56,372 nt of DNA from a virus. Below, piece by piece: positions 4,515-52,502 of the stretch. The DNA lies in the IMG/VR virus record IMGVR_UViG_3300034111_001022, positions 1-56,372 of that record. The stretch is one strand, 5' to 3'. Below the pieces are notes generated by a model. That model had not been told where the DNA came from and made no database searches. It worked only from the letters and a program-made list of their open reading frames with translations. Both the position numbers and the translations under genes were made by a program. How positions within the stretch are numbered: position 1 is the first letter of the stretch; each line of letters begins with the position of its first letter.

Positions 4515-7500
4515 TTAACAATTCCAACGTTTTAATGAGGCCGCCTTACGAGTTGGGTTACCTTGCTCGTCCTTCATCGGCCCCGGCATGCCAGACATTC
4601 TAGCGCAGAATGACTTGCGTCTACCGGCGTCCGCGTCTGTCTTTGGGTGCGGGGCCGGTGCCTTTAGGTTCGAGCCAGTGGCGTTGTTATACTTCGCGCG
4701 GCCCTTTGCAGTCAGCCCGGCGCCTTGTGACACCGGCAACTTCTCGCCTCTGCCTACTGATAAAACAGGGCCGCCTTTAGCGAAGCCTGGTGCGTTATCT
4801 TTAAACTCGTACATCGCATCATAGTCTACCTCGCCACCTTCTGCAAATGCGGGCTCATCTTTTTTATTCCAAAACGGTGACTGCCCACTTGCCTCACGCT
4901 TGTTAGCGCTGCGAATGGCCGTGGCCACTGCGTCTTCAGGAACGATACCGGTCTCACGGATGTAGTTCAAGTCAGCCGGGTGCATCCCCTCAATAATGCT
5001 CGGCATCTCGCGGCCGTCGACATTAATGGAGTACTCGGTCATCACGTCACGGCCGTTAGGCATACGGATCTCGCCCAAGGCACCAGTGTCCTTAGCCTCG
5101 CCAGTCTCACGGTCGCCGTAGTCTTTAAACTCGTACATGGAATCGTAGTCGATATCATCGGTCTCAACCGCGCCACCCTCTGCGTAGTTCGGCTCTTCGT
5201 ACTGCGGCAGCATCTTCGATACGCCACGGCCGTACTCGGCTGATCGTCTTTGTATCTCGGCCTCGGTTGCGCGTCTGCCGCGCTCCTTGATACCAGCCTC
5301 AACGCCGGCCATGTTCTCGTAGTAGTCACCGACGGCGTCGCTCTTAGGACCGGTGAACGGTGAGAAGAAGTAGTCTGTGTACTGGTAGGCCTTGCCCATG
5401 TCTCTAGCCACGTCAGCTGGGATGTCTTGTCTGACGCCGAAGTCGTAGCCACCGCCGTAGTTCAACGCCGCATCAAGCGGTGAGCGGTTCACTCGTGAGT
5501 TGCCGACCGTGTCTAGGTAGTTCTTCTTGAGCTCGCTCGATAGCGCGTCTGGGTACTTGCCGTGCTCGACCGCTTGCTTGTTGTACTGAATGCGATACTT
5601 GGCAGCCTTAGCTAGCAGCTTGGCCTTGTCCATCATTGATAGGCTGGCGAACGGGTCGCTAACCTTGCCGCCCTCTGCGAAGTTCTTGGTGTAGTTGATA
5701 CCCTTGTAGTAAGGCGACACGTTAACGCCAACGCTTGACTGATCGCGTGGGTCGGAACGGTAAACAGATAAGTTCTTGTATTGAGGCGACACGTTAAACC
5801 CTACCGTTGCCTGAGTGCGTGGGTCGGTGCGGTAAGCAGACCAGCCCTTCGCTAGTGGCTGGCGACCAACGCCATACTGCACACCGTCGTCTGTCATGTA
5901 ACGAGCGCGTAGCTCGCTGATGTCGTCACGCTTAATTTTTTGGCCTGGCTGCGTTACGGTGTAGCCGTCGTCGAACGTGTAGGTTCGAGCAGGCAACTTA
6001 AACACTTGGCCCTCTTTGGTAACACCGAAGCCGTACTTGTTTAGGATGTCAACGTCGGTGCTAAAGTTGTAGTGGCTGCCTGACGAGCTCGCACTGTCAA
6101 AGTTGCCGTAGTCACCTGACGCTCTAACGTTCAAGCCACCTTCGTCCATGTGAACTGGTCCGCCGCCAGCGAACTTCTGCTCGCTCTTGACGGCGTACGC
6201 TGGGTTCTTGGCGATAACCAACGGGCCAATCTGTAGTATCTCTTCGGCGCCGGATACAGGCTCCATCGTGTTACGGTCGTAGAAGTAGCCGTGACGCTCA
6301 GGGTCGTATCCAACCTGGACCCACTCACCACTGGCCAAGTTCTCTTGGGCCTTCTTGACCGCGTCCTCTTGGCTTATTGGGTTCCACTCGCCACGGATAA
6401 CAGCGAACGGCGCCTTGGGTCCGCCCTTGGCTACCTTTAACGCCTTGTCCGGTGCGCCTATCATGGTCGCGTTCTTAACTGACGACACTGAGTCGTATAC
6501 CGTCGGCGCGTTCTTGCGGTGAATAGAGTTAACCCACACGCCGTGATCCTTGTAGGCTGGGATGTCTAGGCGTAGGTCTGTCTGCTCACCAGCTGGGATC
6601 TCTGATGCCTTGCCGTACATTGGTTGCTTGTTCTTGGTGAGCGCGCGCATCGCGTCTTCGTATGTTGCTGGTGCTGGCACAAACGAGTACGGCTCAACTG
6701 GCTTGAGTGAGTTGACTAACCTGTCGTACTCGCTCGCGGTGATCTCGCCTCTGTCTAACTGATTGGCCGCCTTTGTCAGCTCAGGGACGCGCTTGGTGAC
6801 GTCCTTGAAGTTCATGTCTATGCGACTGACAGCCGGCGCAGCCTTGGGTGTTATGTACTGCTCGGCCATCTCACGTAAGCCCTTGGCTGCAGCCTTGACC
6901 ACACCGCCACCAGCGAACGCAGGTAGGCCTTGGTTGATCACATAGTCGCGTATCTCTGGCGTAATCTCGAAGCCCATCTGCTCAGACACGTTATTGCCAA
7001 GCTGCACGCCGATAGGTTTAACGCGCTCCGTTACACCCATTGATTTCAGTATATCGTTGGCAGTGCTGGGTATAATCTGATCGTAGTATGTCTTCATGCC
7101 CTCGCCGCCGACTCTAAGTGCATCAGCGTTATAAACTTCGCCACCAAGCCCTTGGGCTTCAATTTGTTTAGCCAAGTCGCTGCCGATGTAATCAGACACC
7201 GAACTCATAGGGATGTTCTTACCGATGCTATGCTCACCGCCACCTGGCAACGTTGCGAGCATTGATACTGTGTTGTCTGGATTCTTTGTAACCATTAGCT
7301 CATCAATCTGCTTAGCTAAGTTGTAACGATCAGCCTGCTGCGCGCCAGTAGTCCAGGCCAAATGGCTTTGCCCCTCGTCAACCGCGCGCTCGATGGCCTT
7401 CTTCAAGCCCAACGCTGTCCAGTCGCCTGTGTCTTCGACGTATGGGCCACGAGGTATGCCTCTTAGCTGAGGTATTTCACGTAGCGCTGCCCGCAATTCG

Positions 7501-8312
7501 CGAACCTTTTGAACCATAGGTGTAGAATCCTCACCGCGATTACGCATAGCCATGACTTCTAAATCTGCATTTTCTAACTCATTTTCCAATTGAATGCGAC
7601 GTTCTGCATTCAAGTCTGGTTCTAAGAACCCTTTCTTCCTACCCTGCTGCGCCCAGTCTGACTGCAGCTCCTCTAGGAACAGCACGTCCTTGTTGTCAGG
7701 TGTAAGCTTAATGTTGGTGCGCAGGTGAGCCAAGATGTTGGGCTCGTCGAAGTGACCAGAACTAAAGTTAGATGGGTCACGGAGTACATCGCTAAGGTTG
7801 GGCTGATCATACTCGCGTACCACCCAATCAGGATTGTTGTTGAGCTTCTCAAGCGTGCGCGCCGGTATGGGCATTGTGCCACTAGCAAGGACGGTTCCGT
7901 TAGCGTCTTTGATTTCAAAGGCCTTATCCATTCTTATTCTAGGTGAGCTTGTGTTTGGAGGCAGATGGATGAGCGTCTCGGTGTAGTCCTCGCCGCCTGG
8001 TAACACGTACTTGCCGTACTGGGTCTCATCGATACCATAACCATCAGCGCGGAGGTTCTTGGTATTAATCTTGGGTGAGTTCTCTTGAATGTGTTTGACG
8101 ATGTCCGCCTTGGACACCTTAGACTGCCGCGCTAGTAGCTCGTCTAGCTTGATCGCTAGTGCTTCTTTCTTCGCGGCCTTGGGTGCGTTAGCCTTGATGT
8201 ACGCTGCCCACTGTGAGCTGGGCATGGTCTCCATCTTATGCGCGATGATCGTTCTCTCTAGTGGAGAGAACATGTTCTTGATCTTGTTGAGTGCGCTAAC
8301 TGGGTTTGGCAT
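4515..8312 (-). CDS. Large polyvalent-type virion protein with C-terminal DUF6321-like domain
   Basis: A 1265-aa protein between terminase and portal. Residues about 215-440 resemble the 'FLEELQSDW...GR-KG...WTTG-QQADRY' region of phage and mobile-element polyvalent proteins, interrupted by an E/R-rich coiled-coil insert (about 235-285). Later come short tandem repeats (two 'YR-DPR-Q-VG-NVSP-YK' units, two 'YD-MYEFKD' units) and six [FY]A-x-GG motifs acting as linkers. The last about 75 residues (VSQGAGLTAKGRAKYN..., ending RKAASLKRWNC) match the small DUF6321-type domain seen in podophages. It may be co-packaged and injected. The enzymatic activity is unproven. The start at 8312 follows AGGGAATGCT. 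Confidence 0.75.
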   Translation of the reverse strand: MPNPVSALNKIKNMFSPLERTIIAHKMETMPSSQWAAYIKANAPKAAKKEALAIKLDELLARQSKVSKADIVKHIQENSPKINTKNLRADGYGIDETQYGKYVLPGGEDYTETLIHLPPNTSSPRIRMDKAFEIKDANGTVLASGTMPIPARTLEKLNNNPDWVVREYDQPNLSDVLRDPSNFSSGHFDEPNILAHLRTNIKLTPDNKDVLFLEELQSDWAQQGRKKGFLEPDLNAERRIQLENELENADLEVMAMRNRGEDSTPMVQKVRELRAALREIPQLRGIPRGPYVEDTGDWTALGLKKAIERAVDEGQSHLAWTTGAQQADRYNLAKQIDELMVTKNPDNTVSMLATLPGGGEHSIGKNIPMSSVSDYIGSDLAKQIEAQGLGGEVYNADALRVGGEGMKTYYDQIIPSTANDILKSMGVTERVKPIGVQLGNNVSEQMGFEITPEIRDYVINQGLPAFAGGGVVKAAAKGLREMAEQYITPKAAPAVSRIDMNFKDVTKRVPELTKAANQLDRGEITASEYDRLVNSLKPVEPYSFVPAPATYEDAMRALTKNKQPMYGKASEIPAGEQTDLRLDIPAYKDHGVWVNSIHRKNAPTVYDSVSSVKNATMIGAPDKALKVAKGGPKAPFAVIRGEWNPISQEDAVKKAQENLASGEWVQVGYDPERHGYFYDRNTMEPVSGAEEILQIGPLVIAKNPAYAVKSEQKFAGGGPVHMDEGGLNVRASGDYGNFDSASSSGSHYNFSTDVDILNKYGFGVTKEGQVFKLPARTYTFDDGYTVTQPGQKIKRDDISELRARYMTDDGVQYGVGRQPLAKGWSAYRTDPRTQATVGFNVSPQYKNLSVYRSDPRDQSSVGVNVSPYYKGINYTKNFAEGGKVSDPFASLSMMDKAKLLAKAAKYRIQYNKQAVEHGKYPDALSSELKKNYLDTVGNSRVNRSPLDAALNYGGGYDFGVRQDIPADVARDMGKAYQYTDYFFSPFTGPKSDAVGDYYENMAGVEAGIKERGRRATEAEIQRRSAEYGRGVSKMLPQYEEPNYAEGGAVETDDIDYDSMYEFKDYGDRETGEAKDTGALGEIRMPNGRDVMTEYSINVDGREMPSIIEGMHPADLNYIRETGIVPEDAVATAIRSANKREASGQSPFWNKKDEPAFAEGGEVDYDAMYEFKDNAPGFAKGGPVLSVGRGEKLPVSQGAGLTAKGRAKYNNATGSNLKAPAPHPKTDADAGRRKSFCARMSGMPGPMKDEQGNPTRKAASLKRWNC

Positions 8313-41092: not shown

Positions 41093-43432
41093 TTACCTCG
41101 CGTTAGTATAGTTAAACGGATTTTCAGCAAAGGCCATGTAAGTGTAGACCACCGTGCTAGTGTTAATGCCCACGTTAGTGCCTCTAATTTTAAAGCCGTT
41201 ACATAAGAAGTCTACATCCACTGCGGTAGCTCCAACAGCTGTAGCGTCTGGGTAAAGCTCTTCTCCTAGCACATTATATGTGTTTCTAGCACTATCTAAA
41301 ACATACCAATTTCGAGCGGTGCTTGTAATAGCCTTAATTAAAATATACTTAGGAGTAAAATCACAAAAAACCAACGCTCCCGTTAAATTATCACCTGTTC
41401 CAGTGTACGCACCAAATTGAGAAAACCCTGGTGTTTCAGCAAAAACGTAAGCCACATAGTCTGATAAATTGGCGTTAACTATTGCATTTGATCCAATCGT
41501 AAAGGTAGTGGTTGTTGGAGAAGTATTATTCCAAACGGTAGTATCGGTTGTAGGATTAGCTGTAGTATTTAAGATTAAATATGCTTGTTCAGGGGCGACC
41601 ACACTTGAAATAGAAGAGCTATAAACAGCCCAGTTAGCAGCGGTTGTTGTTAATCGTTTAACAATAATCATATCAGGCGAAACACCTAGATTATGCGATA
41701 TTGCTTGAGATGTACCATTCCCTACGTATGTGACAATGTCAAACCCAGCAGATGGTGATTCTTTCCAGGTCCAAGCGACATACTTAGACGCAGACGCATT
41801 TAAGTTATCGTTGGTCGCAGAACCTTTAGCCAGCGTTAAACCGGTGCCAGTAAATGCAGAGGCGTTACCGGCAGTACCTAGCGTGTCATCTTGTGTGTTA
41901 GTAAGATTTGAATAAATAGTCTTAAGTGACGTAGATCCTGCTCCGCGAACAGTATCGAACAAGAAGTGATTACCTACTGCAACGTCTCTACGTTTTAACC
42001 AAAAAAAGTTAGGCGTAAAGTTGCCATTCTGTAAAACTTCTCTAGAGACAGTGCCGTCACCTGTGTATAACAACGCATCAAAATATCTATTTGGAACTGT
42101 AATGCCATACAATGGTTTTGTGTAAGCGCAAAGAGGTGTGCCTACTTCAGAGGGCGTGTACACATAAGTATATTGACCAAAGTTAGCTGTTGTTACTACC
42201 GAATAAAATGTTCCAGCCAAATATTGATCTTGTTTTCTAACATAAAGCGACGTGTTTGCGGTAAAACTAAACGATCCCTGGAGGGTGTTGTTTTTATAAA
42301 AGTATACATTGCCACCGTTGATATCTACAACCATACCTATTACATCGGCAGTGGTGTACGTTGCACCCGTGGCAACCGTTGATCCTGATAAATTTACAAT
42401 GGCTCCGTCAGATTTGTAATACCCAAAAGAACTACTTGCTACACCAATGTAAATGCGACCAGTGCCAGACACACTACCTATTGTAAATTCAATGTAATAC
42501 TTGCCTGTTTTGCCTGTGCTAATGCTAGAGGTTACTGTCGCTATAGTATTTCCACCGCCACCACTAGTCGTTGTTGCTGTATACGTATTGCCAAGACGGA
42601 TTGTTATAGATGGAAGTCCTGTGGCTGAAAAATTACCCCAGTTTGCAAAGTTGCCATAAATTTTACCGTCAGCTACCCCTACAACAGGAGAGTCTGTGCT
42701 TGGTGTCATACTTGATGAGTTTATTGATGTCCAATTATTTCCTAGACCTGAATTATCTGTCCCGTAGCCACTAGCTTGCCCAGTTGCAAACGTTAAATAG
42801 TAACCAGTTGTGCCATACGAACCCGTATATTTAATAGGCTGCCATTGGTTATATGTCGCAGTGCTGTACCCAAAAGAAGACGCAGACAACGCTGCATTAT
42901 CAATAAAATTAAACTCAGCAAAAATACTATTAAGATTATAAATGTAGGCTGACGAAACATAATCATAGTAAGAACCAATGGTTGTTACGTTGGTGTCATT
43001 GATAAGCTGGTTAGTGTTTTGCGGAGGATACGTACTGCCCGCAGTGTTAGGTATTAACGCACCATTTACATAAAATTTAACACGGTTGGCGGCTGTAGCT
43101 TGCGTCATGTCAATGGTTAAAACAACGTGATACCAGGCGCTAGGATCGCGTAAAAAACTATTGCTTGTTGCAGTGTATAACGTGCCAGCATTAAATTTAT
43201 AGGTTAACGCACCATCTACAAGAGAAAAGTTATTGTAGTTAGTAGAAGATGTTCCTGTTCCAATAATTGGCTCAGTCCCAGTTACGTCAGTAGCCTTCAT
43301 CCAAAAAGACAAAGTGAACGTCTTTTGATTGCCCGCAGAAGCTAGAGTTTTGCTTAAATACGCACCGCTTGAAAAAATCAACGCGCTTTTAATTAAATAC
43401 GGATTGGCTGATCCAGCGGAATAGACAAGCAT
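41093..43432 (-). CDS. Tail adhesin with LamG-like, SPRY-like and DUF7483-like domains
   Basis: 779 aa from the ATG at 43432, which overlaps the previous stop by one base (TAATG). Residues about 15-215 form a laminin-G/concanavalin-like lectin domain ('FTLSFWMKATDV', 'WYHVVLTIDMT', 'KFYVNGAL'). About 270-430 is SPRY-like ('GKYYIEFTIG', 'GRIYIGVASS', 'GMVVDINGGNVYFYKNNT'). The rest resembles DUF7483, common in phage fibres ('YVAWTWKESPSAGFDIVTYVGNG', 'HNLGVSPDMIIVKR', 'DFLCNGFKIRG'). A likely receptor- or glycan-binding tail protein. Confidence 0.8.
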   Translation of the reverse strand: MLVYSAGSANPYLIKSALIFSSGAYLSKTLASAGNQKTFTLSFWMKATDVTGTEPIIGTGTSSTNYNNFSLVDGALTYKFNAGTLYTATSNSFLRDPSAWYHVVLTIDMTQATAANRVKFYVNGALIPNTAGSTYPPQNTNQLINDTNVTTIGSYYDYVSSAYIYNLNSIFAEFNFIDNAALSASSFGYSTATYNQWQPIKYTGSYGTTGYYLTFATGQASGYGTDNSGLGNNWTSINSSSMTPSTDSPVVGVADGKIYGNFANWGNFSATGLPSITIRLGNTYTATTTSGGGGNTIATVTSSISTGKTGKYYIEFTIGSVSGTGRIYIGVASSSFGYYKSDGAIVNLSGSTVATGATYTTADVIGMVVDINGGNVYFYKNNTLQGSFSFTANTSLYVRKQDQYLAGTFYSVVTTANFGQYTYVYTPSEVGTPLCAYTKPLYGITVPNRYFDALLYTGDGTVSREVLQNGNFTPNFFWLKRRDVAVGNHFLFDTVRGAGSTSLKTIYSNLTNTQDDTLGTAGNASAFTGTGLTLAKGSATNDNLNASASKYVAWTWKESPSAGFDIVTYVGNGTSQAISHNLGVSPDMIIVKRLTTTAANWAVYSSSISSVVAPEQAYLILNTTANPTTDTTVWNNTSPTTTTFTIGSNAIVNANLSDYVAYVFAETPGFSQFGAYTGTGDNLTGALVFCDFTPKYILIKAITSTARNWYVLDSARNTYNVLGEELYPDATAVGATAVDVDFLCNGFKIRGTNVGINTSTVVYTYMAFAENPFNYTNAR

Positions 43433-44634
43433 TATGCAACCCCTAAAGAACGACCTTGTTCGTACAAGTTCGTGCCGTCTGATCGGAACACAAAGTAATC
43501 TTTTGCCCCAGCGGCTGTGGATAAAATAGGGGATGCCCCGCCATTCCATTTAAACACGCTGTTCCAGGTAAGTGTATTAGATCCTGCATTTTGAATAACA
43601 GCCAATGCGTAAAAACCACCACTCACGAGATTGGTTGGCGCACCAACAGTTCTGTTAGATGACACAAAAGTAAACGTTGCCACTTGCCCGTTTTGAGTGT
43701 CCCAAGCAATGGTGGTTGCATCTGTTAATGCAATGTTTGGTGAGTAGCCTGTTCCAACAACGGCCAACTTGGCACTTGGTGAGGATGTTCCTAAGCCTAC
43801 AAATCCGCCTGACACACCTGTGCCACCAGTGATGGCCATTTTAATGGTGTCGTTAGTTCTGACGTAAAGCGGAACGTCAGTGACTGTACCAAAGTCTACT
43901 TCACCTGAAGTGGCATAAAAACTACCTATTCTTGTAGCGTTGACGCTTAAATCAAGCACTGGCGATGTCGTAGCTCCAACTACAAAATTGACGTATCCAG
44001 TGCCATAATTGACAGGCGCTGACCCAACACCTAAATTGCCATTGGTATCTAACTGTACGCGTTGAGCGCCACCCGTGTATAAAGCCAGCGGTAAATACGA
44101 TCCTGAACCTAATTTTCCAGCAGCCAATATAGAGGCTGTAGCATTGACCAATACTTGTGTGGTAGATGAATTGGTTGGCGTGCTATTATTAATAGCTGTG
44201 AATCCTGAGCTTGCACTAGTTCCGTTTGGAATAGCAGCAATAGACGTGTCGCCGTTGACAGTGCTTGATTTAAACAACACCTGGTTGGCAATAGTCCCGT
44301 TGCTGAAATCACCAAGGATGCGATTGCCTGTAGACGTAAATGTTAAGTCGTTAGAGATATTGACGTCTACAAACGTTCCTGTGGTAATCGGTGTAATCCC
44401 GCCAATTGTAACGTTATCAATTGTGCCACCAGTGATGGCCACATCATCTGCGTCTTGGCTGCCCAAAGAGCCAACCATCGTGACAACAGCAGAGGTGCTG
44501 CTTATTAAAGAATAAATCTTTTTATCGGTAACGTTGACAGCTAGCTCACCCTGTTTTAAATTACCGGCAAGTGGCACCGCAGCTGCTGTGGCGCTGTTGT
44601 ATAAAATAATTTCTGTGGATCCTGGTGCGGCCAT
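43432..44634 (-). CDS. Tail fibre protein
   Basis: A 400-aa Ser/Thr/Gly/Asn-rich beta protein. The N-terminus ('STEIILYNSATAAAVPLAGNLKQGELAVNVTDKKIYSL') is the common head of environmental phage fibres that hold the stalk. Further strands repeat as 'GNLGVGSAPV...GTGYVNF', 'VGLGTSSPSAKLAV', which read like fibre shaft repeats. The end carries 'GAKDYFVFRSDGTNLYEQGRSLGVA'. It is expressed with the next adhesin by a one-base overlap. Confidence 0.75.
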   Translation of the reverse strand: MAAPGSTEIILYNSATAAAVPLAGNLKQGELAVNVTDKKIYSLISSTSAVVTMVGSLGSQDADDVAITGGTIDNVTIGGITPITTGTFVDVNISNDLTFTSTGNRILGDFSNGTIANQVLFKSSTVNGDTSIAAIPNGTSASSGFTAINNSTPTNSSTTQVLVNATASILAAGKLGSGSYLPLALYTGGAQRVQLDTNGNLGVGSAPVNYGTGYVNFVVGATTSPVLDLSVNATRIGSFYATSGEVDFGTVTDVPLYVRTNDTIKMAITGGTGVSGGFVGLGTSSPSAKLAVVGTGYSPNIALTDATTIAWDTQNGQVATFTFVSSNRTVGAPTNLVSGGFYALAVIQNAGSNTLTWNSVFKWNGGASPILSTAAGAKDYFVFRSDGTNLYEQGRSLGVA

Positions 44635-44636
44635 GT

Positions 44637-44879
44637 TTAATTACCTCCTGTTGCAGCAAACGCTTGATTTGCTTTTTCAATCAACCTATCAAGGTCTCCT
44701 GAACTTGTTAAATCATCAAAAATAGATGACAGTATTATATCTTTTTCAGGGTCTGTTTGCACAAAAGACGCAACGCTGTGACCAGCGTCGTTAGGGTTAT
44801 AGATATTTATTTGATTTGCCGCATTATTTGGAACGACTGATATGCGTATTTTATAGTTTTGGTATTCAAAATATTCCAT
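44637..44879 (-). CDS. Small protein between fibre genes
   Basis: An 80-aa protein with a short beta N-terminal half (MEYFEYQNYKIRISVVPNNAA) and a helical acidic C-terminal half. It is tightly packed between two fibre genes. Its size and place suggest a fibre chaperone or adaptor. No family is recognised. Confidence 0.6.
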   Translation of the reverse strand: MEYFEYQNYKIRISVVPNNAANQINIYNPNDAGHSVASFVQTDPEKDIILSSIFDDLTSSGDLDRLIEKANQAFAATGGN

Positions 44880-44887
44880 AATTTTTC

Positions 44888-45775
44888 CTAAACGGATATA
44901 ACTTTAACTTCGTATGCATAGGTAGTAAAAGAAGTGCCAGCCGGGGAAGTTCTATTAGTAAAGCGTAATAAGACTTGTGTAGCTGTTACAATTGTTTGCA
45001 CTTTTACAGCATTGACAGCACCAGCAGGGAAGTTGGTAGCGTCAGAGTTATATGCTGCATACATAAGGACTGCTCCAGCAATTGCATATGTTGACCCTGT
45101 ATAGTTAATGTTTTGTGCCCAAGCCTTAAACAGTCTATTTATTGTAACAGGAGTAGCTGGATTATCTACGTACACTCCGTTAACCCTAGCTTCCATAAAA
45201 TAATTAGAAAGTAGATTAGCACTAAAATACCCTGTGATATCTACATCGATAGTAGTGTCCCCACCCCCCATAGTTAGTGAACCCGCAAAAGTAACTCCAT
45301 TACCTTGGGAAAATTGCCCATCAACACCTATACTCATAAAAGTCGATTGTAAGCTAGTTGCGCTTACAGTAGACCCCGATATTGCTAATCCTTGCGTTAA
45401 TGTTGTGGTGTTAGAGGTTGCGGTGTAAAACCGTAATGACGTTCCGCCTGTTGCAGATGTTGCATAAGCTGAAATTTTAGCTCTGACCCCGTTAGCGTTT
45501 GTGCTGTTATCGTTACCAAAAAATTCAACGTTTCCTAGGAAATTGCCTATAGCAACAGAAGTTAGTGTGTTTTCTAAACGTACTGTACCGCCGGAGGTCG
45601 TTCCGTTGGCTATGTGTAAATCAGTAACTGGAACAGCTTTATTAATACCAACTTTATTTGCCCCATCGGTTACTAGGGTATTTGACGCTACATTAAGCGT
45701 GTCTGTACCTGCGTCCCCTAGTACGGCGTTGCCCGTGGAAGTAATTCCTGTTGTTCCATCTAAAACTATAGCCAT
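44888..45775 (-). CDS. Tail fibre protein
   Basis: A 295-aa fibre with the 'MAIVLDGTTGITSTGNAVLGDAG' start shared by many environmental phage fibres, followed by shaft repeats ('NKVGINKAVPVTDLHIANG'), and a C-terminal beta domain ('DITGYFSANLLSNYFMEARVNGVYV', 'VLLRFTNRTSPAGTSFTTYAYEVKV') that may bind the receptor. The ribosome site GGAAACACT precedes the start. Confidence 0.75.
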   Translation of the reverse strand: MAIVLDGTTGITSTGNAVLGDAGTDTLNVASNTLVTDGANKVGINKAVPVTDLHIANGTTSGGTVRLENTLTSVAIGNFLGNVEFFGNDNSTNANGVRAKISAYATSATGGTSLRFYTATSNTTTLTQGLAISGSTVSATSLQSTFMSIGVDGQFSQGNGVTFAGSLTMGGGDTTIDVDITGYFSANLLSNYFMEARVNGVYVDNPATPVTINRLFKAWAQNINYTGSTYAIAGAVLMYAAYNSDATNFPAGAVNAVKVQTIVTATQVLLRFTNRTSPAGTSFTTYAYEVKVISV

Positions 45776-45794
45776 AGTGTTTCCTTAATTTGCT

Positions 45795-46187
45795 TTATGC
45801 TGCTGCTTTAGCTTCTTCAGTTATTTTCTTTTCGGCAAGTACCGCATCGTAGTCTAAACCACCAGCAATGATTTGTGCTTTTAATGCTTCTAATACTAAT
45901 CGTGCTTTGTTTTGTTCAACCCTTTCAGAACGCAACAATGACCGCAATTTGTCACGGTATTGATATTGCGATACCGTTTGAACATCAGCATCTTCCATAT
46001 CCCAAGGTAAATTTTGTGTTTCTGTATTGCTATGTATGGCTAAATTACTAGGAATAGCATCTTGCGGCAATCCTGTAAGCATAACAGTATAGTTATCTAC
46101 ATTAACTTGATATTGATAAACTTCTTTTTCACGATGATACGCGTTTGTAACTAGTGTATCTAAATGTTCTGATTGTGTTACTACCAT
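45795..46187 (-). CDS. Fibre-associated helical protein
   Basis: A 130-aa protein: an N-terminal region with 'YHREKEVYQYQVNVDNYTVMLTGLP' and a helical C-terminal half ('YRDKLRSLLRSERVEQNKARLVLEALKAQI') ending in a basic/acidic Ala tail. It lies between the propeller-type adhesin and a fibre, which suits a tail-fibre assembly chaperone. That role is inference. Confidence 0.6.
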   Translation of the reverse strand: MVVTQSEHLDTLVTNAYHREKEVYQYQVNVDNYTVMLTGLPQDAIPSNLAIHSNTETQNLPWDMEDADVQTVSQYQYRDKLRSLLRSERVEQNKARLVLEALKAQIIAGGLDYDAVLAEKKITEEAKAAA

Positions 46188-46213
46188 AATTATTTCTCCT
46201 GATTAAAAAAATA

Positions 46214-47410
46214 TTAAACATTGTTAAATGCAACACTTTGACCCGCACCGCCACTTCCACCATCTGGAAGTGGCACAGGGTTAGCATACTTAGTACCAAA
46301 ACCAGCACTCCAAGGATATGCTGAAACCCATGGTGTTGAGCCATGTCCTACTACAATGGCTGTTCCTGCTGGATTAAATGTAACACTTTCACCTTGACCA
46401 CCTGGAAGTGTTGCAGGGTTAGCATATTTAGCTCCAAAACCAGCCGACCAAGGGTAAGTTGAAATAAAAGGTGTTCCGGTATGCGCTACTGCAATAACTG
46501 TTCCTGCTGGGTTAAATGCAACACCTTGACCAAAACTAGCTGGAAGTGTTGCAGGGTTAGCGTATTTAGTACCAAAACCAGCACTCCAAGGGTAAGCTGA
46601 TATAAAAGGTGTTCCGGCATGTGCTATTGCAATAACTGTTCCTGCTGGATTAAATGTAACTCCAAACCCAGTACCAGTTGGAAGTGTTGCAGGGTTAGCA
46701 TACTTAGTGCCAAAACCAGCACTCCAAGGGTAAGTTGATATATTTGGGAAAGCATTATGCACTACTGCAATGGCTGTTCCTGCTGGGTTAAATGCAACAC
46801 CATAACCCTCACCAGTTGGAAGTGTTGCAGGGTTAGCATACTTAGTGCCAAAACCAGCCGACCAAGGGTAAGTTGAAATAAAAGGTGTTCCGGTATGCGC
46901 TACTGCAATAACTGTTCCTGCTGGGTTAAATGCAACACCTTGACCAAAACCAGTTGGAAGTGTTGCAGGGTTAGCATACTTAGTGCCAAAACCAGCCGAC
47001 CAAGGGTAAGTTGATATACGTGGTGTTACGGAATGTGCTACTGCAATAACTGTTCCTGCTGGGTTAAATGCAACTCCAAGCCCAGTACCAGTTGGAAGTG
47101 TTGCAGGGTTAGCATACTTAGTGCCAAAACCAGCACTCCTGGGAGGACTTATACTAGATGTTACTTCAAAAGGATAAGTTGATATAAATGGGGTATTATT
47201 ATGTGCTATTGCAATAACTGATTGAGCCATACTTTTACCCCAAAAATTAGTAGGCATTGTAATAGCTCCACTAGCAACGCCAGCAAGCGTTCTTACCGCA
47301 GTATCGTTAAGGCTAATTTGCGTTGAAGTGCCTAGGCTTAATTCTAAGGCAATAGACTGCCCTGTAATTGCGCCAGCAAGGCTTATCGGACCTGATGAAT
47401 TAAGTGCCAT
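46214..47410 (-). CDS. Adhesin with seven-repeat beta-propeller
   Basis: A 398-aa protein. The first about 60 residues ('GPISLAGAITGQSIALELSLG') are a tail-attachment head seen on other phage adhesins. The rest is seven 46-aa repeats of the form 'GVAFNPAGTVIAVAHTGTP-[FI]S-YPWSAGFGTKYANPATLPT', like WD/YncE blades. The first blade lacks its 'VAFNPAG' strand, and the C-terminus supplies exactly that strand (GQSVAFN), a Velcro closure. It is probably a tail adhesin with a variable top face. Confidence 0.85.
   Translation of the reverse strand: MALNSSGPISLAGAITGQSIALELSLGTSTQISLNDTAVRTLAGVASGAITMPTNFWGKSMAQSVIAIAHNNTPFISTYPFEVTSSISPPRSAGFGTKYANPATLPTGTGLGVAFNPAGTVIAVAHSVTPRISTYPWSAGFGTKYANPATLPTGFGQGVAFNPAGTVIAVAHTGTPFISTYPWSAGFGTKYANPATLPTGEGYGVAFNPAGTAIAVVHNAFPNISTYPWSAGFGTKYANPATLPTGTGFGVTFNPAGTVIAIAHAGTPFISAYPWSAGFGTKYANPATLPASFGQGVAFNPAGTVIAVAHTGTPFISTYPWSAGFGAKYANPATLPGGQGESVTFNPAGTAIVVGHGSTPWVSAYPWSAGFGTKYANPVPLPDGGSGGAGQSVAFNNV
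46254..47170 (-). repeat. Seven direct repeats of 138 bp
   Basis: The core TTAGCATACTTAGT (plus strand) begins at 46281, 46419, 46557, 46695, 46833, 46971 and 47109, an exact 138-bp period, encoding the propeller blades. Many stretches are identical between units while the bases for loop residues after AVAH differ. Such arrays can expand, shrink or exchange by recombination. Confidence 0.95.
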
Positions 47411-47412
47411 TA

Positions 47413-47694
47413 TTAAACTGTTCCGTATGCTGTTACGTTTGCTAGGGCTGTAAAGTTACCTGATGAGTCTAACTTGGCAACGTTAGTGCCGTTATAATTA
47501 AAGAATAACGTAGTTCCGCTAGGTGTTACACTCCAACCACCAGAGTTTGTGATGTTGTTAGCATTAATTGTACTAGCGCTTGTTAAAACCGTACCAGACG
47601 TTGCAGGTAATGTTAATACCGTTGTTCCCGCTACAGCTGGTGCGCTTAGGGTTACTGTTCCGCTGGTATCGCCTGCTATGATTACTGAACTCAT
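47413..47694 (-). CDS. Small fibre-type beta protein
   Basis: A 93-aa protein made of typical fibre elements: 'GDTSGTVTLSAPAVAGTTVLTLPATSGTVLTSAS' then a short end 'NGTNVAKLDSSGNFTALANVTAYGTV'. This start is found on many longer fibres in environmental phages, so this copy looks like a stand-alone head or a trimmed paralogue. It lies directly upstream of the propeller gene. Confidence 0.65.
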   Translation of the reverse strand: MSSVIIAGDTSGTVTLSAPAVAGTTVLTLPATSGTVLTSASTINANNITNSGGWSVTPSGTTLFFNYNGTNVAKLDSSGNFTALANVTAYGTV

Positions 47695-47695
47695 G

Positions 47696-47989
47696 CTATG
47701 CTCCTAGTGCTTGTATTTTAGCTGTTAAGGCTGCAAGTTCAGCCATCAATTCTGCTTTGGTTGGTTCTGGTGGGGCTGCATATTCTAATACTGGCTGCTC
47801 AATAGGTAATGTAGTTATATCCCAAACTTCTCCATCCCAAGTGCAAGATTCTAATTCTGTAAATGTAGGTGGCTCTATTGGTGTTGAATCAGCAGGAGTA
47901 ATATATACACCAAGTTCTAAGGGGCTTTCTTGACAATCATAAAAACCTGCATATTTAAAAGTAACACCATCAAATAAATAAACTCTCAT
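47696..47989 (-). CDS. Possible tail-fibre assembly protein
   Basis: A 97-aa acidic protein: 'MRVYLFDGVTFKYAGFYDCQESPLE', Pro-rich middle, 'CTWDGEVWDI', and a C-terminal Ala/Leu/Glu helix ('PTKAELMAELAALTAKIQALGA'). This order (strand, PP, W-x3-W, helix) is like tail-fibre assembly chaperones. It lies 8 nt downstream of the collar-domain gene. Confidence 0.65.
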   Translation of the reverse strand: MRVYLFDGVTFKYAGFYDCQESPLELGVYITPADSTPIEPPTFTELESCTWDGEVWDITTLPIEQPVLEYAAPPEPTKAELMAELAALTAKIQALGA

Positions 47990-47997
47990 ATTAATTC

Positions 47998-48561
47998 CTA
48001 AAATTTAACGCAGAATAATACTGCAGTTGATGCTGCCAAGTTGGCAGTTCCACCATTTGAAGATGTTGTTGTTGTTACTGGAACTGAAGCAACAGCAGCA
48101 GCAGATGAGTTACCCCCACCAGTAGCTTGATATTGTGTAAATGAGTGAGTATGTGCTAAGTTTTGACCAACTGTAGCTGTAGCTACGTTAGAGTTGGCTT
48201 GTGTCATAGCATAACCAGCAGCAAACCAAGGAATACCAAAAGTAGTAGAGCCGTCACCAGCGCCCCACGTTGTACCTATAGCTGCAAATAAAGCCGCATA
48301 AGTAGTTCTTGATATTGTCGTGGCGGAAGTAGGGCAAGTTAAGTAACCTGTCGGAGGAGTAGTTCCAGAAAATTGAATAATAGTTCCCGCTGGAATTAAA
48401 CTTGCTCCGTTTACAGTCAATGTGCCAGTAACTGCAACTCCAGTAGAAGTTATCGCAGCAATGGTAGTGCCACTGCTTTGTATGTTTAAATCGCCACTAC
48501 TGTCTGCTGTAGTGATTACTCCTCCGCCTGAGGCTGTTGTTGCGTTTATTGTAGATGCCAT
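47998..48561 (-). CDS. Phage tail collar domain protein
   Basis: A 187-aa protein. The C-terminal two thirds show the tail collar pattern: 'IPAGTIIQFSGTTPPTGYLTCPT', 'SRTTYAALFAAIGTTWGAGDGSTTFGIP', then 'HTHSFTQYQATGGG' near the end. Collar domains cap short fibres and often bind receptors. It overlaps the long fibre's stop by one base and was probably a domain of the same fibre in other phages. Confidence 0.85.
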   Translation of the reverse strand: MASTINATTASGGGVITTADSSGDLNIQSSGTTIAAITSTGVAVTGTLTVNGASLIPAGTIIQFSGTTPPTGYLTCPTSATTISRTTYAALFAAIGTTWGAGDGSTTFGIPWFAAGYAMTQANSNVATATVGQNLAHTHSFTQYQATGGGNSSAAAVASVPVTTTTSSNGGTANLAASTAVLFCVKF

Positions 48562-51119
48562 TATAAAATCACCAATCTAGATCCATTAGGGACAGTAATA
48601 TTCATTCCTGAAGGCACTGTAATAGGACCAACAGTCATAGAACTCTTGTTTGTGCTTACAGTATAGCTTGCTGTTATAGTCTGATTATTTTCTAAAAATA
48701 CATTATCTATTTGCGGACTGCTAGCAGTTGCAGCTAGTGTGCCTGCTGTAAACGTAAGATTTGCGCCTACAGTTACATTGCTGAAGCCACCTGCGCCATT
48801 GCCATAAAGAATAGACGTGCCAGAAGTTGCAGGGGCGTAATCAGTGCCAGAAGTAGCCGCAGAGATGGCTGTGCCGTTACCTTTTAATAAACCAGTGATA
48901 GTTGTTGAAAGTGTAATCGCTGGGGTTGTTGTTGATGTTGCTACAGTGCCTGCAAATCCGTTAGCGCTAACAACAGATACGTCAGTAACAGTTCCGCCAC
49001 TAGCAGCACCATTAGCTGCAGCAGTAATCCTACCTTTTGCATCAACTGTAATATTAGCGTTAGTAAATGCACCAACATTAGCGTTCACTGTAGCTAGTGT
49101 CAAACTTCCTGTGCTTGCCAATGTTGCGTCGCTAGACATTGCAACAGGTGCATACGCAGTGCCACCAGCATTGCCTACAAGAATTTGTCCTGAGGCAGGT
49201 GCGGTATTAGGGACTATAGCTTCTTTTGTTTGAATGTCATTGGTGACGTTGCTTAAACCTACATCTGTTTTTGTAGGTGTTGAATAACTGAATGTGCCTG
49301 AACCGTTATTATATAGCCAACCTGTAGCGTTTGCTAAAGAGCCGATAGTTGTTAAATTTGTATACGCAGCTTGTTTGCCGTTAAATGTCGACCAATCAGC
49401 AGAGCTTAATGCTCCTCTATTGGCTGCTGATGCAGTTGGCACGTTCAGTGTGATGACAGGCGTTGTTGTGCTGTTGGCAACTGTAGATGATAAATCTGTT
49501 CCTGTTGTGCCTAGTGTTAATGCGGCTACAGAAGTGACTGATCCGCCCGCTGATGTAGAAGACAAAGTGCCTGCAGAAAAAGACAACCCTGATCCTACGG
49601 TGACATTGCTAAAACCACCTGCACCGTTGCCGTAAAGAATGCTTGTGCCAGAAGTTGCAGGGGCGTAATCCGTTCCACTTGTTGCAGCAGTAAATGCAGT
49701 TGTGCCGTTACCTTTTACAAGACCAGTAATTGTTGAAACTCCTGTACCTCCATTTGCAACACCAAGCTCACCAGAAACAGCCGTAGTTTGATTTAACGGA
49801 ACGGCGTTCCACTCTACTTGAGTGCCTGACGCATTAATTATCAATGATTTGTATGCAACCCCTAGCGGTAACTTGGACCATGTGTCTGTAGCTGAACCAT
49901 ACAACAAATCGCCTGTAGCAACTGTGCTAGTGCCAGTACCCCCGTTAGTGGCTGCAACTGTGTCAATAGCAATTGTGCCAGACGTTGTAATCGTGCCGCC
50001 AGTTAAACCTGTGCCAGCCGTAATGCTAGTTACTGTGCCTCCAGTCCCTGTCAGCGTAAAATTAGGATACGTACCAGTAACGGCAACTGTGCCAGCGCCA
50101 GTTAAAACCACTGTTTGATCAGGTGCTGTGTTGGTGATTGTAACGGCAGAAGAGCCGTTATAACTAGTCCCAGACAATCCACTGCCAATAGTCAAAGCAT
50201 AAGGTGCCGCCGCAGTGATTGTGCCTGAGCTACCCAAAGTAACTGGCGTACCATTAATTGTTAATGAGTCGTACTGTAAATCAGCGTTAACTAAGTTCCT
50301 GTAGGTTGGAATAGCATCCACTCCACTTGCAGGACCAGCTTTAACTAAGTTGGCTCCGACAGGAATGCTTAAATCTACATTAGCCCAATATGGGGCACCT
50401 GTGCCTGACGAGGCTAATACTTGATTAAGTGAGCCAGCGCTACTTATTAATATATTGCTGCCGTCAGAGTAAGCGATACCGCCATCGGCTGGTGCAGTTA
50501 ACGCTGTGCCTGTGCCGCCACGGGTAGGGCTTAAAACACCATTTGTTTGATCAGTGTCTGTTAAATCAATAGAAGGGTGAACGTGATCAGCACGTGCCAT
50601 TGTGTTGCTTACACCTGCAGTAGCGTCGCCTACAGCTAGCGGGGTAGCGTTAGATAATGCAGCAGAAAGCGTTACATCGCTTGTTAATGTTCCGCCGCCT
50701 GTTAACCCAATACCCGCAATTACTTGGCGTGAGGTAGGTACAAAGCCCGACGTAGAGGGTAAAGGTAAGGTCGTTGCCGCTGTTAAACGACCGTTTGCGT
50801 CAACTGTAATAACCGGGTAGTTGTTAGAGTTGCCATAGACACCAGCTGAAACGCCTGTCAAATCAAGCTGCGTTGAGCCAATCCCACCAACAGCAACAGA
50901 AATTGTGATGTTAGATGACAGTGCCCCACCGCCTGTAAGCCCGGTCCCAGCAGCTACAACACGTGACGTAGGCACACCAGACACATTTAATAGTGCATTT
51001 ACTTGTACTTTATAGGTCTGCCCATCTCGGACATACACCATCCACCCCGTTTCTGATGGGGCTGGATCCTCTTGTAGTTGAGTAATCTTTAATGGTATCT
51101 GGCTGTATGGTTGTGCCAT
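48561..51119 (-). CDS. Long tail fibre with repeated shaft modules
   Basis: An 852-aa fibre. The N-terminus 'YSQIPLKITQLQEDPAPSETGWMVYVRDGQTYKVQVN' is followed by repeats such as 'GTGLTGGG-SS-ITISV', 'VDANGRLTAAT', 'NGGTGTS' and two copies of 'GTDYAPATSGTSILYGNG' encoded by near-identical stretches (about 48780-48850 and 49615-49685). Composition is Gly/Thr/Ser/Ala with few charges, as in trimeric beta-helical shafts. It ends one base before the collar protein, probably its distal partner. Confidence 0.8.
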   Translation of the reverse strand: MAQPYSQIPLKITQLQEDPAPSETGWMVYVRDGQTYKVQVNALLNVSGVPTSRVVAAGTGLTGGGALSSNITISVAVGGIGSTQLDLTGVSAGVYGNSNNYPVITVDANGRLTAATTLPLPSTSGFVPTSRQVIAGIGLTGGGTLTSDVTLSAALSNATPLAVGDATAGVSNTMARADHVHPSIDLTDTDQTNGVLSPTRGGTGTALTAPADGGIAYSDGSNILISSAGSLNQVLASSGTGAPYWANVDLSIPVGANLVKAGPASGVDAIPTYRNLVNADLQYDSLTINGTPVTLGSSGTITAAAPYALTIGSGLSGTSYNGSSAVTITNTAPDQTVVLTGAGTVAVTGTYPNFTLTGTGGTVTSITAGTGLTGGTITTSGTIAIDTVAATNGGTGTSTVATGDLLYGSATDTWSKLPLGVAYKSLIINASGTQVEWNAVPLNQTTAVSGELGVANGGTGVSTITGLVKGNGTTAFTAATSGTDYAPATSGTSILYGNGAGGFSNVTVGSGLSFSAGTLSSTSAGGSVTSVAALTLGTTGTDLSSTVANSTTTPVITLNVPTASAANRGALSSADWSTFNGKQAAYTNLTTIGSLANATGWLYNNGSGTFSYSTPTKTDVGLSNVTNDIQTKEAIVPNTAPASGQILVGNAGGTAYAPVAMSSDATLASTGSLTLATVNANVGAFTNANITVDAKGRITAAANGAASGGTVTDVSVVSANGFAGTVATSTTTPAITLSTTITGLLKGNGTAISAATSGTDYAPATSGTSILYGNGAGGFSNVTVGANLTFTAGTLAATASSPQIDNVFLENNQTITASYTVSTNKSSMTVGPITVPSGMNITVPNGSRLVIL

Positions 51120-51433
51120 TAAAATCTCTTCTTAGCGTATAAATAACCAGTGTCATCTTCAGTGATGAGATACTCTTCACCATCCTGAGTGATGATACCG
51201 TACTGATCTTGTGTTAAAGGTAAGTCTGGACGTACAAAAGGCAGTGTAATCTGATCAGCTGGGCGAGGGGCCAAGCGATAAGGATCGTAGTTATCTAAAT
51301 CTTCTTTACACACCATCAACCCAGGTGAATTTGGGTCAGAATAAAGCTCAGCAAGGGGCATTTTGCGACTACAACGAGCGCACAATGCAACACCTAAGGT
51401 AGAATTTCCAGTGGTATCAAGAAAAATAGCCAT
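51119..51433 (-). CDS. Zinc-ribbon-like structural-operon protein
   Basis: 104 aa from the ATG at 51433. 'LCARCSRKMPLAELYSDPNSPGLMVCKEDLDNYDPYRL' holds a CxxC plus a later C, a pattern repeated in small proteins between neck and fibre genes of related phages. The C-terminal half has short strands ('QDQYGIITQDGEEYLITEDDTGYLY'). It may help attach or assemble fibres. It overlaps the fibre start by one base. Confidence 0.7.
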   Translation of the reverse strand: MAIFLDTTGNSTLGVALCARCSRKMPLAELYSDPNSPGLMVCKEDLDNYDPYRLAPRPADQITLPFVRPDLPLTQDQYGIITQDGEEYLITEDDTGYLYAKKRF

Positions 51434-51435
51434 AT

Positions 51436-52419
51436 TTACCTTGTGTACGGTGAAATCCAAGGCTGAATAGTAGTTGGGCTACCATCGTTGTCACCATCCC
51501 ATGCTGTACGCATTGAAATTTCAGCAACTTGCATTAATTGAACAGACAAATTAGGATCAACAGTTTCTGTTTCCATTGCTAGTTTAGATGCAAGCTTCAT
51601 TACGATAGCATCGTACCAACGTTGAGGGATGTCTAGCTCTTGTTGTAAGTTGCCAACGTCCATAATTTGACGATGACGCCACACAATCAACTGAGCATAC
51701 TCAGCATAAGCATTAGGGGCAGGCCAAAGGTTAAGTGTTGGCTGATTAATGTTACGTTGGAACCAATAGGTAGTGGGCCGACCGTTATACACTTTGTTAC
51801 TTTGTGCCACGTAGGTATCACGGTTAAGTAATCCAAATGGAATCTCAGTAGGCGTGTTACCTAAAAACACAGTCTCTACAAGAAACGGGTCATTACTTTT
51901 TACTCTAAAGAACGGAAACGCGTTAGCAGGAATAATGTCATACCAAATCCACTCGTTAGCGCCAGCTGATGCAGGAATCTCACCAACCTTAAACCAGATA
52001 TCGCCATCTTCAGACACTTCTAAATCTACGTCAACACTTGGTGTTAGCCACTTAATCCCTACGTTACTAACGATAGTGTCTTGTCCACCAAAGTCGACTT
52101 CGTATGTAGTGGTTGTAATAGTTTCTACACCAACTTGCTGTAATAATGTACGATAGTTAAGATTTAAAACTTCTTCAGTACCCAACGGGAGCGTAACGAT
52201 AGGTTGCCCTTCGTACATAGGTAAGATAAGCTTATCGATACACCAGGATGGGGTCTTGATACTAGCAAGCTCTGAAAGCAACAGGTACAGCAAATCAATT
52301 GCTGTCTGTTGCATCTCAGCGGTTACTTTTTGAGGTGGAATCTTACAACGACGAAAAGCGTGATCAATCACGCGTCTCGTGTTAAAGGTAGTCGTGCTAA
52401 TTGTTCCTGACATTGCCAT
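51436..52419 (-). CDS. Putative head-tail connector/neck protein
   Basis: 327 aa from the ATG at 52419 (GAGGAATATTTTG upstream; a TTG three bases earlier is less likely). The N-terminal helical part 'RRVIDHAFRRCKIPPQKVTAEMQQTAIDLLYLLLSELAS' is connector-like. The middle is beta (inserted domain about 100-190). The C-terminal part 'TYVAQSNKVYNGRPTTYWFQRNINQPTLNLWPAPNAYAEYAQLIVWRHRQI' and 'QRWYDAIVMKLASKLAM' resemble gp11/gp4-type neck proteins. Not certain; a fibre-attachment role is possible. Confidence 0.6.
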   Translation of the reverse strand: MAMSGTISTTTFNTRRVIDHAFRRCKIPPQKVTAEMQQTAIDLLYLLLSELASIKTPSWCIDKLILPMYEGQPIVTLPLGTEEVLNLNYRTLLQQVGVETITTTTYEVDFGGQDTIVSNVGIKWLTPSVDVDLEVSEDGDIWFKVGEIPASAGANEWIWYDIIPANAFPFFRVKSNDPFLVETVFLGNTPTEIPFGLLNRDTYVAQSNKVYNGRPTTYWFQRNINQPTLNLWPAPNAYAEYAQLIVWRHRQIMDVGNLQQELDIPQRWYDAIVMKLASKLAMETETVDPNLSVQLMQVAEISMRTAWDGDNDGSPTTIQPWISPYTR

Positions 52420-52502
52420 CAAAATATTCCTCTAGTTGATGGCCGCTGTTACAGCAAGCCCAATCTTTTCAGCTTATTATACTACGCCAAGTTAAAAAAA
52501 TA
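52420..52502 (-). promoter_or_regulatory. Candidate late promoter, copy 2
   Basis: The minus strand carries TATAATAAGCTGAAAA (complement of 52466-52481), one base different from the motif at 37469-37484, with CGTAG directly before it. No convincing -35 is visible, only a T-rich tract. It lies in one of the few gaps in the late block, upstream of the connector gene and fibres. Confidence 0.55.

What the first reader, a model, noticed from the sequence alone, without database searches (positions are those of the whole stretch)
46214..47410. Tail adhesin with a recombinable seven-blade propeller and Velcro closure
Seven exact 138-bp repeats encode 46-aa WD/YncE-like blades. The first blade lacks the strand that the last residues of the protein supply, so the ring is closed by its own ends. 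Seven blades is the common closed ring size. The near-identity of DNA units together with change at the residues after AVAH suggests that blade exchange or copy change could shift receptor range.
Basis: partly seen in the sequence, partly recalled or inferred. Interest (0 to 1): 0.65.

Follow-up and report, generated by a model that had tools for sequence, protein, structure and literature searches.

The report
Seven-blade phage propeller with partner gene
This phage gene makes a closed ring of seven near-alike blades that very probably sits on the tail; four residues per blade on one face change under selection while the ring size stays fixed at seven, and a small uncharacterised gene almost always travels with it, which suggests a widespread, unnamed phage device for recognising bacteria.

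Summary
The ORF at 46214-47410 (-), 398 aa, encodes a ~60-aa N-terminal module and seven ~46-aa blades. The 138-bp DNA units are not exact: the six 46-codon windows compared share 74-93%. The predicted fold is a closed seven-bladed propeller, closed by the last residues (strand 392-395; Z 38.5 to designed ring 7bid). Blade number is quantised: of 131 distinct complete members, 102 have 7, 17 have 14 and 2 have 21. Four positions per blade (two in the b-c loop, two in the d-a loop, same face) vary with omega 3.4 in the ten least diverged arrays (window 5.8); the rest is 0.32. One pair of otherwise identical loci differs by one exact blade. The gene directly downstream (45795-46187) is a constant companion: 110 of 124 propellers have it, and the 80 best partner hits all adjoin a propeller. 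Best reading: tail-borne adhesin with a diversifying recognition face and a dedicated helical partner, probably a chaperone. Binding is not shown. Copy number looks constrained, so 'copy change' is weak.

The parts
46214..47410 (-). propeller protein gene (398 aa)
   Evidence: ORF; identical protein and 10 kb of identical DNA in a second contig, L002
47231..47410 (-). N-terminal module, residues 1-60 (MALNSSGPISLAG...)
   Evidence: same module carries other C-terminal domains in L098, L099, L100; low confidence in the model
47081..47221 (-). blade 1 (strands b, c, d; strand a missing; 10-aa insertion)
46940..47077 (-). blade 2, 46 aa
46802..46939 (-). blade 3, 46 aa
46664..46801 (-). blade 4, 46 aa
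46526..46663 (-). blade 5, 46 aa
46388..46525 (-). blade 6, 46 aa
   Evidence: 92-bp exact tract with blade 3
46238..46387 (-). blade 7, 50 aa (4-aa insertion in the d-a loop)
46217..46237 (-). closing strand (SVAFNNV) that completes blade 1
   Evidence: model strand 392-395; family-wide permutation
45795..46187 (-). partner gene, 130 aa, helical hairpin
   Evidence: 110 of 124 propellers have it; 224 adjacent vs 2 other hits; the 80 best reverse hits all adjoin a propeller; model pLDDT 96.8
41093..52422 (-). cluster of tail-fibre-type genes around the pair (collar domain 47998-48561; LamG/SPRY/DUF7483 protein 41093-43549)

Best explanation
The gene encodes a tail-borne host-recognition protein. 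A short N-terminal module docks it to the virion, and a seven-bladed propeller, closed by its own C-terminal strand, presents one face to the host surface. On that face four positions per blade (two in the b-c loop, two in the d-a loop; about 28 residues round the ring) are diversified by selection, while the scaffold and the ring size are held constant. In some lineages, including this one, blades have recently been copied or converted into one another within the array. The gene directly downstream makes a small helical protein that works on the propeller domain, most likely as a chaperone for folding or closing the repetitive ring. Shown by computation: fold, closure, quantised blade number, selection pattern, partner linkage, tail-gene context. 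Inferred: virion location, host binding, which face binds, partner role.
For: Closed ring: AF2 pTM 0.79, seven blades, C-terminal strand 392-395; VIA Z 38.5, rmsd 1.9, 286 of 286 residues of the designed ring 7bid. Ring as unit of selection: 121 of 131 distinct complete members have 7, 14 or 21 blades; among members found with two-blade queries 62 of 70; among partner-query loci 60 of 65 complete ORFs; in the 14- and 21-blade members the longest spacing falls at or beside the ring boundary. Diversified face: omega 3.40 (bootstrap 2.93-4.04) at columns 16, 17, 44, 46 in the ten arrays with low synonymous divergence, 0.32 elsewhere; the same columns rank first when those ten arrays are left out. 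Close orthologue pairs: replacement changes about four-fold enriched in these loops, p = 6e-5 for N against S. Tail context: upstream tail-fibre proteins and downstream tail-fibre assembly chaperones in unrelated loci; window neighbours carry collar, LamG and tail-fibre matches. Docking modules swapped. Partner: 110 of 124, 224 vs 2, 80 of 80. Restricted to viruses: two cellular contigs with blades, both beside phage-type genes.
Against: No experiment shows virion location or binding, and no member has a known receptor. Faces were assigned from standard propeller connectivity, not by mapping residues on coordinates. Most arrays have saturated synonymous sites, so blade exchange is not a general habit. 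Blade pairs within an array are not independent, so bootstrap limits are over proteins only. The partner's fold gives no functional match.
Confidence: 0.68

Rival explanations
1. Multivalent lectin: seven like pockets bind a repeated sugar by avidity, and loop changes are secondary tuning, with no blade-by-blade recognition code.
For: Strongly conserved H15, P19, F/Y20 next to the variable residues in every blade; a five-bladed propeller in the phi11 receptor-binding protein is thought to bind GlcNAc (PMC4901313).
Against: In the low-divergence arrays the loops differ strongly between blades of the same ring (pN 0.26-0.64 at the four columns), which would make the seven sites unlike each other.
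Confidence: 0.2
2. Structural or head-decoration protein, or an enzyme of the lactonase type, not an adhesin; loop variation reflects contacts with other fast-changing proteins.
For: Lactonase-fold chains are among the best structural matches. In phage ZRG1 a distant propeller gene lies between the major capsid and baseplate genes.
Against: No lactonase family matches the window protein, and only one of 30 members weakly matches a gluconolactonase family; variation sits on two loops in every blade rather than round a single pocket; tail-fibre neighbours in several lineages.
Confidence: 0.1
3. The partner is a component of the finished tail (adaptor or plug), not a chaperone.
For: Same order and close spacing across very different N-terminal docking modules.
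Against: Nothing direct. A separate tail-fibre assembly chaperone gene (PF16778) often follows, which fits either reading.
Confidence: 0.35
4. Blade-number outliers and the one-blade deletion are short-read assembly errors, and arrays do not recombine today.
For: Short reads failed to rebuild WD40 arrays of Podospora (PMC12222747).
Against: L168 and L169 differ only by an exact 141-bp unit at a 32-bp shared tract, with no mismatch in 3 kb on each side, a tract shorter than a usual read; the window lineage has been homogenised relative to L003.
Confidence: 0.3

Closest known systems
Podospora anserina HNWD (het-d/het-e) WD40 sensor domains (PMC12222747)
   Same: near-alike blades, concerted evolution, a few hypervariable codons per repeat under diversifying selection on the interaction face, seven-blade rings predicted
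   Different: fungal NLR immune receptors, reactive alleles usually 11 conserved repeats plus cryptic ones; here a phage gene with blade number in multiples of seven and a partner gene
Highly repetitive beta-propellers (Pereira and Lupas, PMC9218822) and WRAP/7bid designs
   Same: fold and amplification from single blades; best structural match
   Different: that paper reports that globally repetitive propellers often exceed the usual blade number; here it is quantised; the word 'phage' does not occur in its text
phi11 Gp45 receptor-binding protein; PhiKZ gp131C seven-blade domain, as described in PMC4901313
   Same: propeller in a phage host-recognition device; for gp131C seven blades, function not confirmed
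   Different: no near-identical blades described there; phi11 has five blades
Tail-fibre chaperones V22 gp27 (PMC7289586) and Pam3 gp25 (PMC9608196)
   Same: gp27 is encoded directly downstream of a receptor-binding protein and needed for its maturation; gp25 complexes with its fibre
   Different: the partner here matches no Pfam family above cut-off and no PHROG family beyond one weak hit in one of 36 members; sequence relation to gp27 or gp25 not tested
Propeller-lectin fibres of contractile injection systems (PMC12923769)
   Same: propeller as receptor-binding part of a tail fibre
   Different: predicted from structure models; collagen-shaft architecture, no quantised near-identical array described in the passages read

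Membership tests
Closed seven-bladed beta-propeller (fold) | seven radial blades, ring closed by joining N- and C-terminal strands | tested here: met
   AF2 model and VIA Z 38.5 to 7bid over model 64-398
WD40 repeat family (Pfam PF00400) | match to the curated WD40 model | tested here: not met
   no match for the window protein; 1 of 30 members, E 2.4e-5
Highly repetitive propellers | blades nearly alike in sequence | tested here: met
   63-91% protein identity between the six 46-residue windows
Phage receptor-binding tail protein | encoded among tail-fibre genes | tested here: met
Phage receptor-binding tail protein | N-terminal docking module separable from the C-terminal binding domain | tested here: met
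   same N-terminal module with other C-terminal parts, and propeller with many N-termini
Phage receptor-binding tail protein | binds a host surface receptor | not testable with these tools
   needs a binding experiment
Diversity-generating retroelement target | reverse transcriptase nearby | tested here: not met
   no RVT_1 match in the 56,372-base record; the record may be incomplete
HNWD-like sensor | hypervariable codons with omega above 1 in otherwise conserved repeats | tested here: met
   omega 3.4; window 5.8
HNWD-like sensor | NACHT NLR architecture | tested here: not met
   398 aa, no NACHT match
Phage_tail_APC (PF16778) for the partner | match to the curated model | tested here: not met
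   window partner and its L008 relative have no match; PF16778 is found in a separate gene further downstream in other loci
Tail-fibre chaperone (V22 gp27, Pam3 gp25 kind) for the partner | gene directly downstream of the binding protein | tested here: met
   102 of the 110 partners lie downstream
Tail-fibre chaperone (V22 gp27, Pam3 gp25 kind) for the partner | needed for maturation of the binding protein | not testable with these tools
   needs co-expression

The most novel reading that the evidence does not exclude
An uncatalogued two-gene recognition cassette of tailed phages: a seven-blade ring whose face is diversified at four positions per blade, with blades copied within the array, plus a dedicated helical partner that builds or closes the ring; a phage counterpart of fungal WD40 immune sensors.
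Probability: 0.4. Interest if true: 0.75.

Novelty: new variant of a known kind. Interest (0 to 1): 0.6.

Why it matters
If right, phages and fungi reached the same solution for recognising changing partners: a rigid near-symmetric ring with a few hypervariable residues per blade. The fixed count of 7, 14 or 21 makes ring closure visible in natural sequence data and gives a clean test of how repeat number is held under recombination. The partner gene is a handle for finding more such cassettes and for asking how a repetitive ring is folded. Neither gene has a family in Pfam or PHROGs at useful scores.

Tried and rejected
Diversity-generating retroelement: no reverse transcriptase in the record. 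PDB by sequence: one chain at E 0.71 for the propeller and no useful hit for the partner. Partner fold search: no Foldseek hit at E <= 0.001, and VIA Z of 8-10 to unrelated helical hairpins, read as a common arrangement. Whole-ring duplication as origin of the 14-blade forms: same-index blades of rings 1 and 2 are barely more alike than other pairs, so not supported. Partner in cultured distant relatives POR1, ZRG1, CGphi29: no match better than E 0.2. Co-divergence of partner and propeller: Mantel Spearman 0.23, 0 of 200 permutations as high, but shared phage ancestry alone could give this, so it is not used as evidence. Literature on phage WD40/YVTN in fresh water: none found in one search.

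Full report
Observation. The ORF at 46214-47410 (-) encodes 398 aa: about 60 residues of N-terminal module and seven blades. The 138-bp units are regular but not exact. Tandem Repeats Finder gives 6.3 copies at 83% match. Six 46-codon windows starting at strand a of blades 2-7 share 63-91% protein and 74-93% DNA identity; the lower values all involve blade 7, whose repeat is 50 residues long and was cut to 46. The longest exact tract is 103 bp at offset 414. The first blade lacks strand a and has a 10-residue insertion.

Fold. A model built on 30 window and locus proteins has pTM 0.79 and mean pLDDT 77.7, with low confidence confined largely to residues 1-60 and a strand at 392-395. VIA-align gives Z 38.5, rmsd 1.9, 286 of 286 residues of the designed seven-blade ring 7bid, covering model 64-398. 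This supports a closed ring whose last strand completes blade 1. The strongest viral match is a protein of an uncultured Caudovirales phage named WD40/YVTN repeat-like.

Family. The same patterns in 84,980 bacterial and archaeal species genomes gave five loci; only two carry blades, and both lie on contigs with phage-type genes, tail-fibre-like in L096 and, by my reading of the sequence, a terminase-like ORF in L097. The 'phages' collection holds five records, the best being MW202701. No Pfam or PHROG family covers the blades at useful scores.

Blade number. Among 138 complete unique ORFs, 131 at 90% identity, the counts are 7: 102, 14: 17, 21: 2, others 10. Members found with two-blade queries, which should not favour any total, give 62 of 70 in multiples of seven. 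Loci found through the partner gene give 60 of 65 complete ORFs, mostly 14. In 14- and 21-blade members the longest spacing is at or beside the ring boundary, and nearly all chains end just after a strand a. The binomial figure of 3e-89 ignores shared ancestry and is only a guide. The outliers may be real or assembly errors.

Variation. Over 127 arrays the four most variable codons per blade are columns 16 and 17 (b-c loop) and 44 and 46 (d-a loop). By standard propeller connectivity (established knowledge, not tested here) these loops share one face; I did not map them on coordinates. In ten arrays with synonymous divergence under 0.25, omega at these columns is 3.40 (2.93-4.04) and 0.32 elsewhere; the window gives 5.8, and random four-column sets reach its value with frequency 5e-5. 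The columns rank first also when those ten arrays are excluded, and omega falls as synonymous sites saturate. In five close orthologue pairs replacements are enriched in the loops (8.5% against 2.3% of codons; N against S odds ratio 4.1, p = 6e-5), with the pairs from one group not independent.

Exchange. The window's six aligned blades match each other at 63-91% and the blades of L003 at 43-80%, with all six best matched by the same L003 blade, although the downstream gene is 92% identical. This points to recent copying within the array. L017 and L019, by contrast, keep blade order, and most arrays have saturated synonymous sites, so exchange is not general. L168 and L169 are identical for 3 kb on each side and differ by one exact 141-bp blade at a 32-bp shared tract: a probable natural deletion.

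Partner. The gene at 45795-46187, 26 bases after the propeller stop, has relatives next to propellers in 110 of 124 members, 102 of them downstream. Of 226 hits among 20,592 small ORFs, 224 adjoin a propeller. The reverse scan gave 476 relatives; the best 80, the only ones kept, all have a propeller adjacent. The profile was iterated on nearby ORFs, so the first two figures are somewhat favourable; the reverse scan starts from the partner and is a fairer test, though 396 weaker relatives were not looked at. The N-termini of the propellers vary widely while the partner stays, so the partner most likely acts on the propeller domain. Its model is a confident helical hairpin without a telling structural match. 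Chaperones encoded downstream of receptor-binding proteins are known (PMC7289586; a fibre-chaperone complex in PMC9608196); that is the basis for my guess.

Context. Window neighbours include a collar-domain protein and a LamG/SPRY/DUF7483 protein. In unrelated loci the propeller follows tail-fibre proteins or precedes tail-fibre assembly chaperones. The N-terminal module carries other domains in L098-L100. Tail location is therefore likely, not proven.

Known relatives. Fungal HNWD sensors show the same combination of conserved repeats and hypervariable codons (PMC12222747). Propellers occur in phage receptor-binding proteins (PMC4901313) and injection-system fibres (PMC12923769). New propellers arise from single blades in all lineages (PMC9218822). 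The quantised number, the phage setting and the partner gene are what I could not find described, within the few papers read.

Noticed in passing
window 45795-46187 (-): Uncatalogued 130-aa helical partner gene constantly next to the propeller.
   Followed up: yes
window 41093-43549 (-): Protein with LamG, SPRY and DUF7483 matches, another candidate surface-binding tail protein.
   Followed up: no
window 5703-5840: 72-bp direct repeat, 1.9 copies, inside ORF 4515-8312.
   Followed up: no
L098, L099, L100: The MALNSSGPISLAG-type N-terminal module is joined to other C-terminal domains.
   Followed up: partly
L066:6996-7526: Partner start appears fused to a tail-fibre assembly chaperone end; possible deletion or assembly join.
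   Followed up: no
L025 and L027: Two propeller genes in tandem, with the partner between them in L025.
   Followed up: no
L097:6639-9533: Contig labelled Nitrosotalea MAG with two propeller genes and a partner-like ORF between them, next to phage-type genes.
   Followed up: partly
L094:5394-10320: Very long blade protein, over 1,600 aa, running off the locus end.
   Followed up: no
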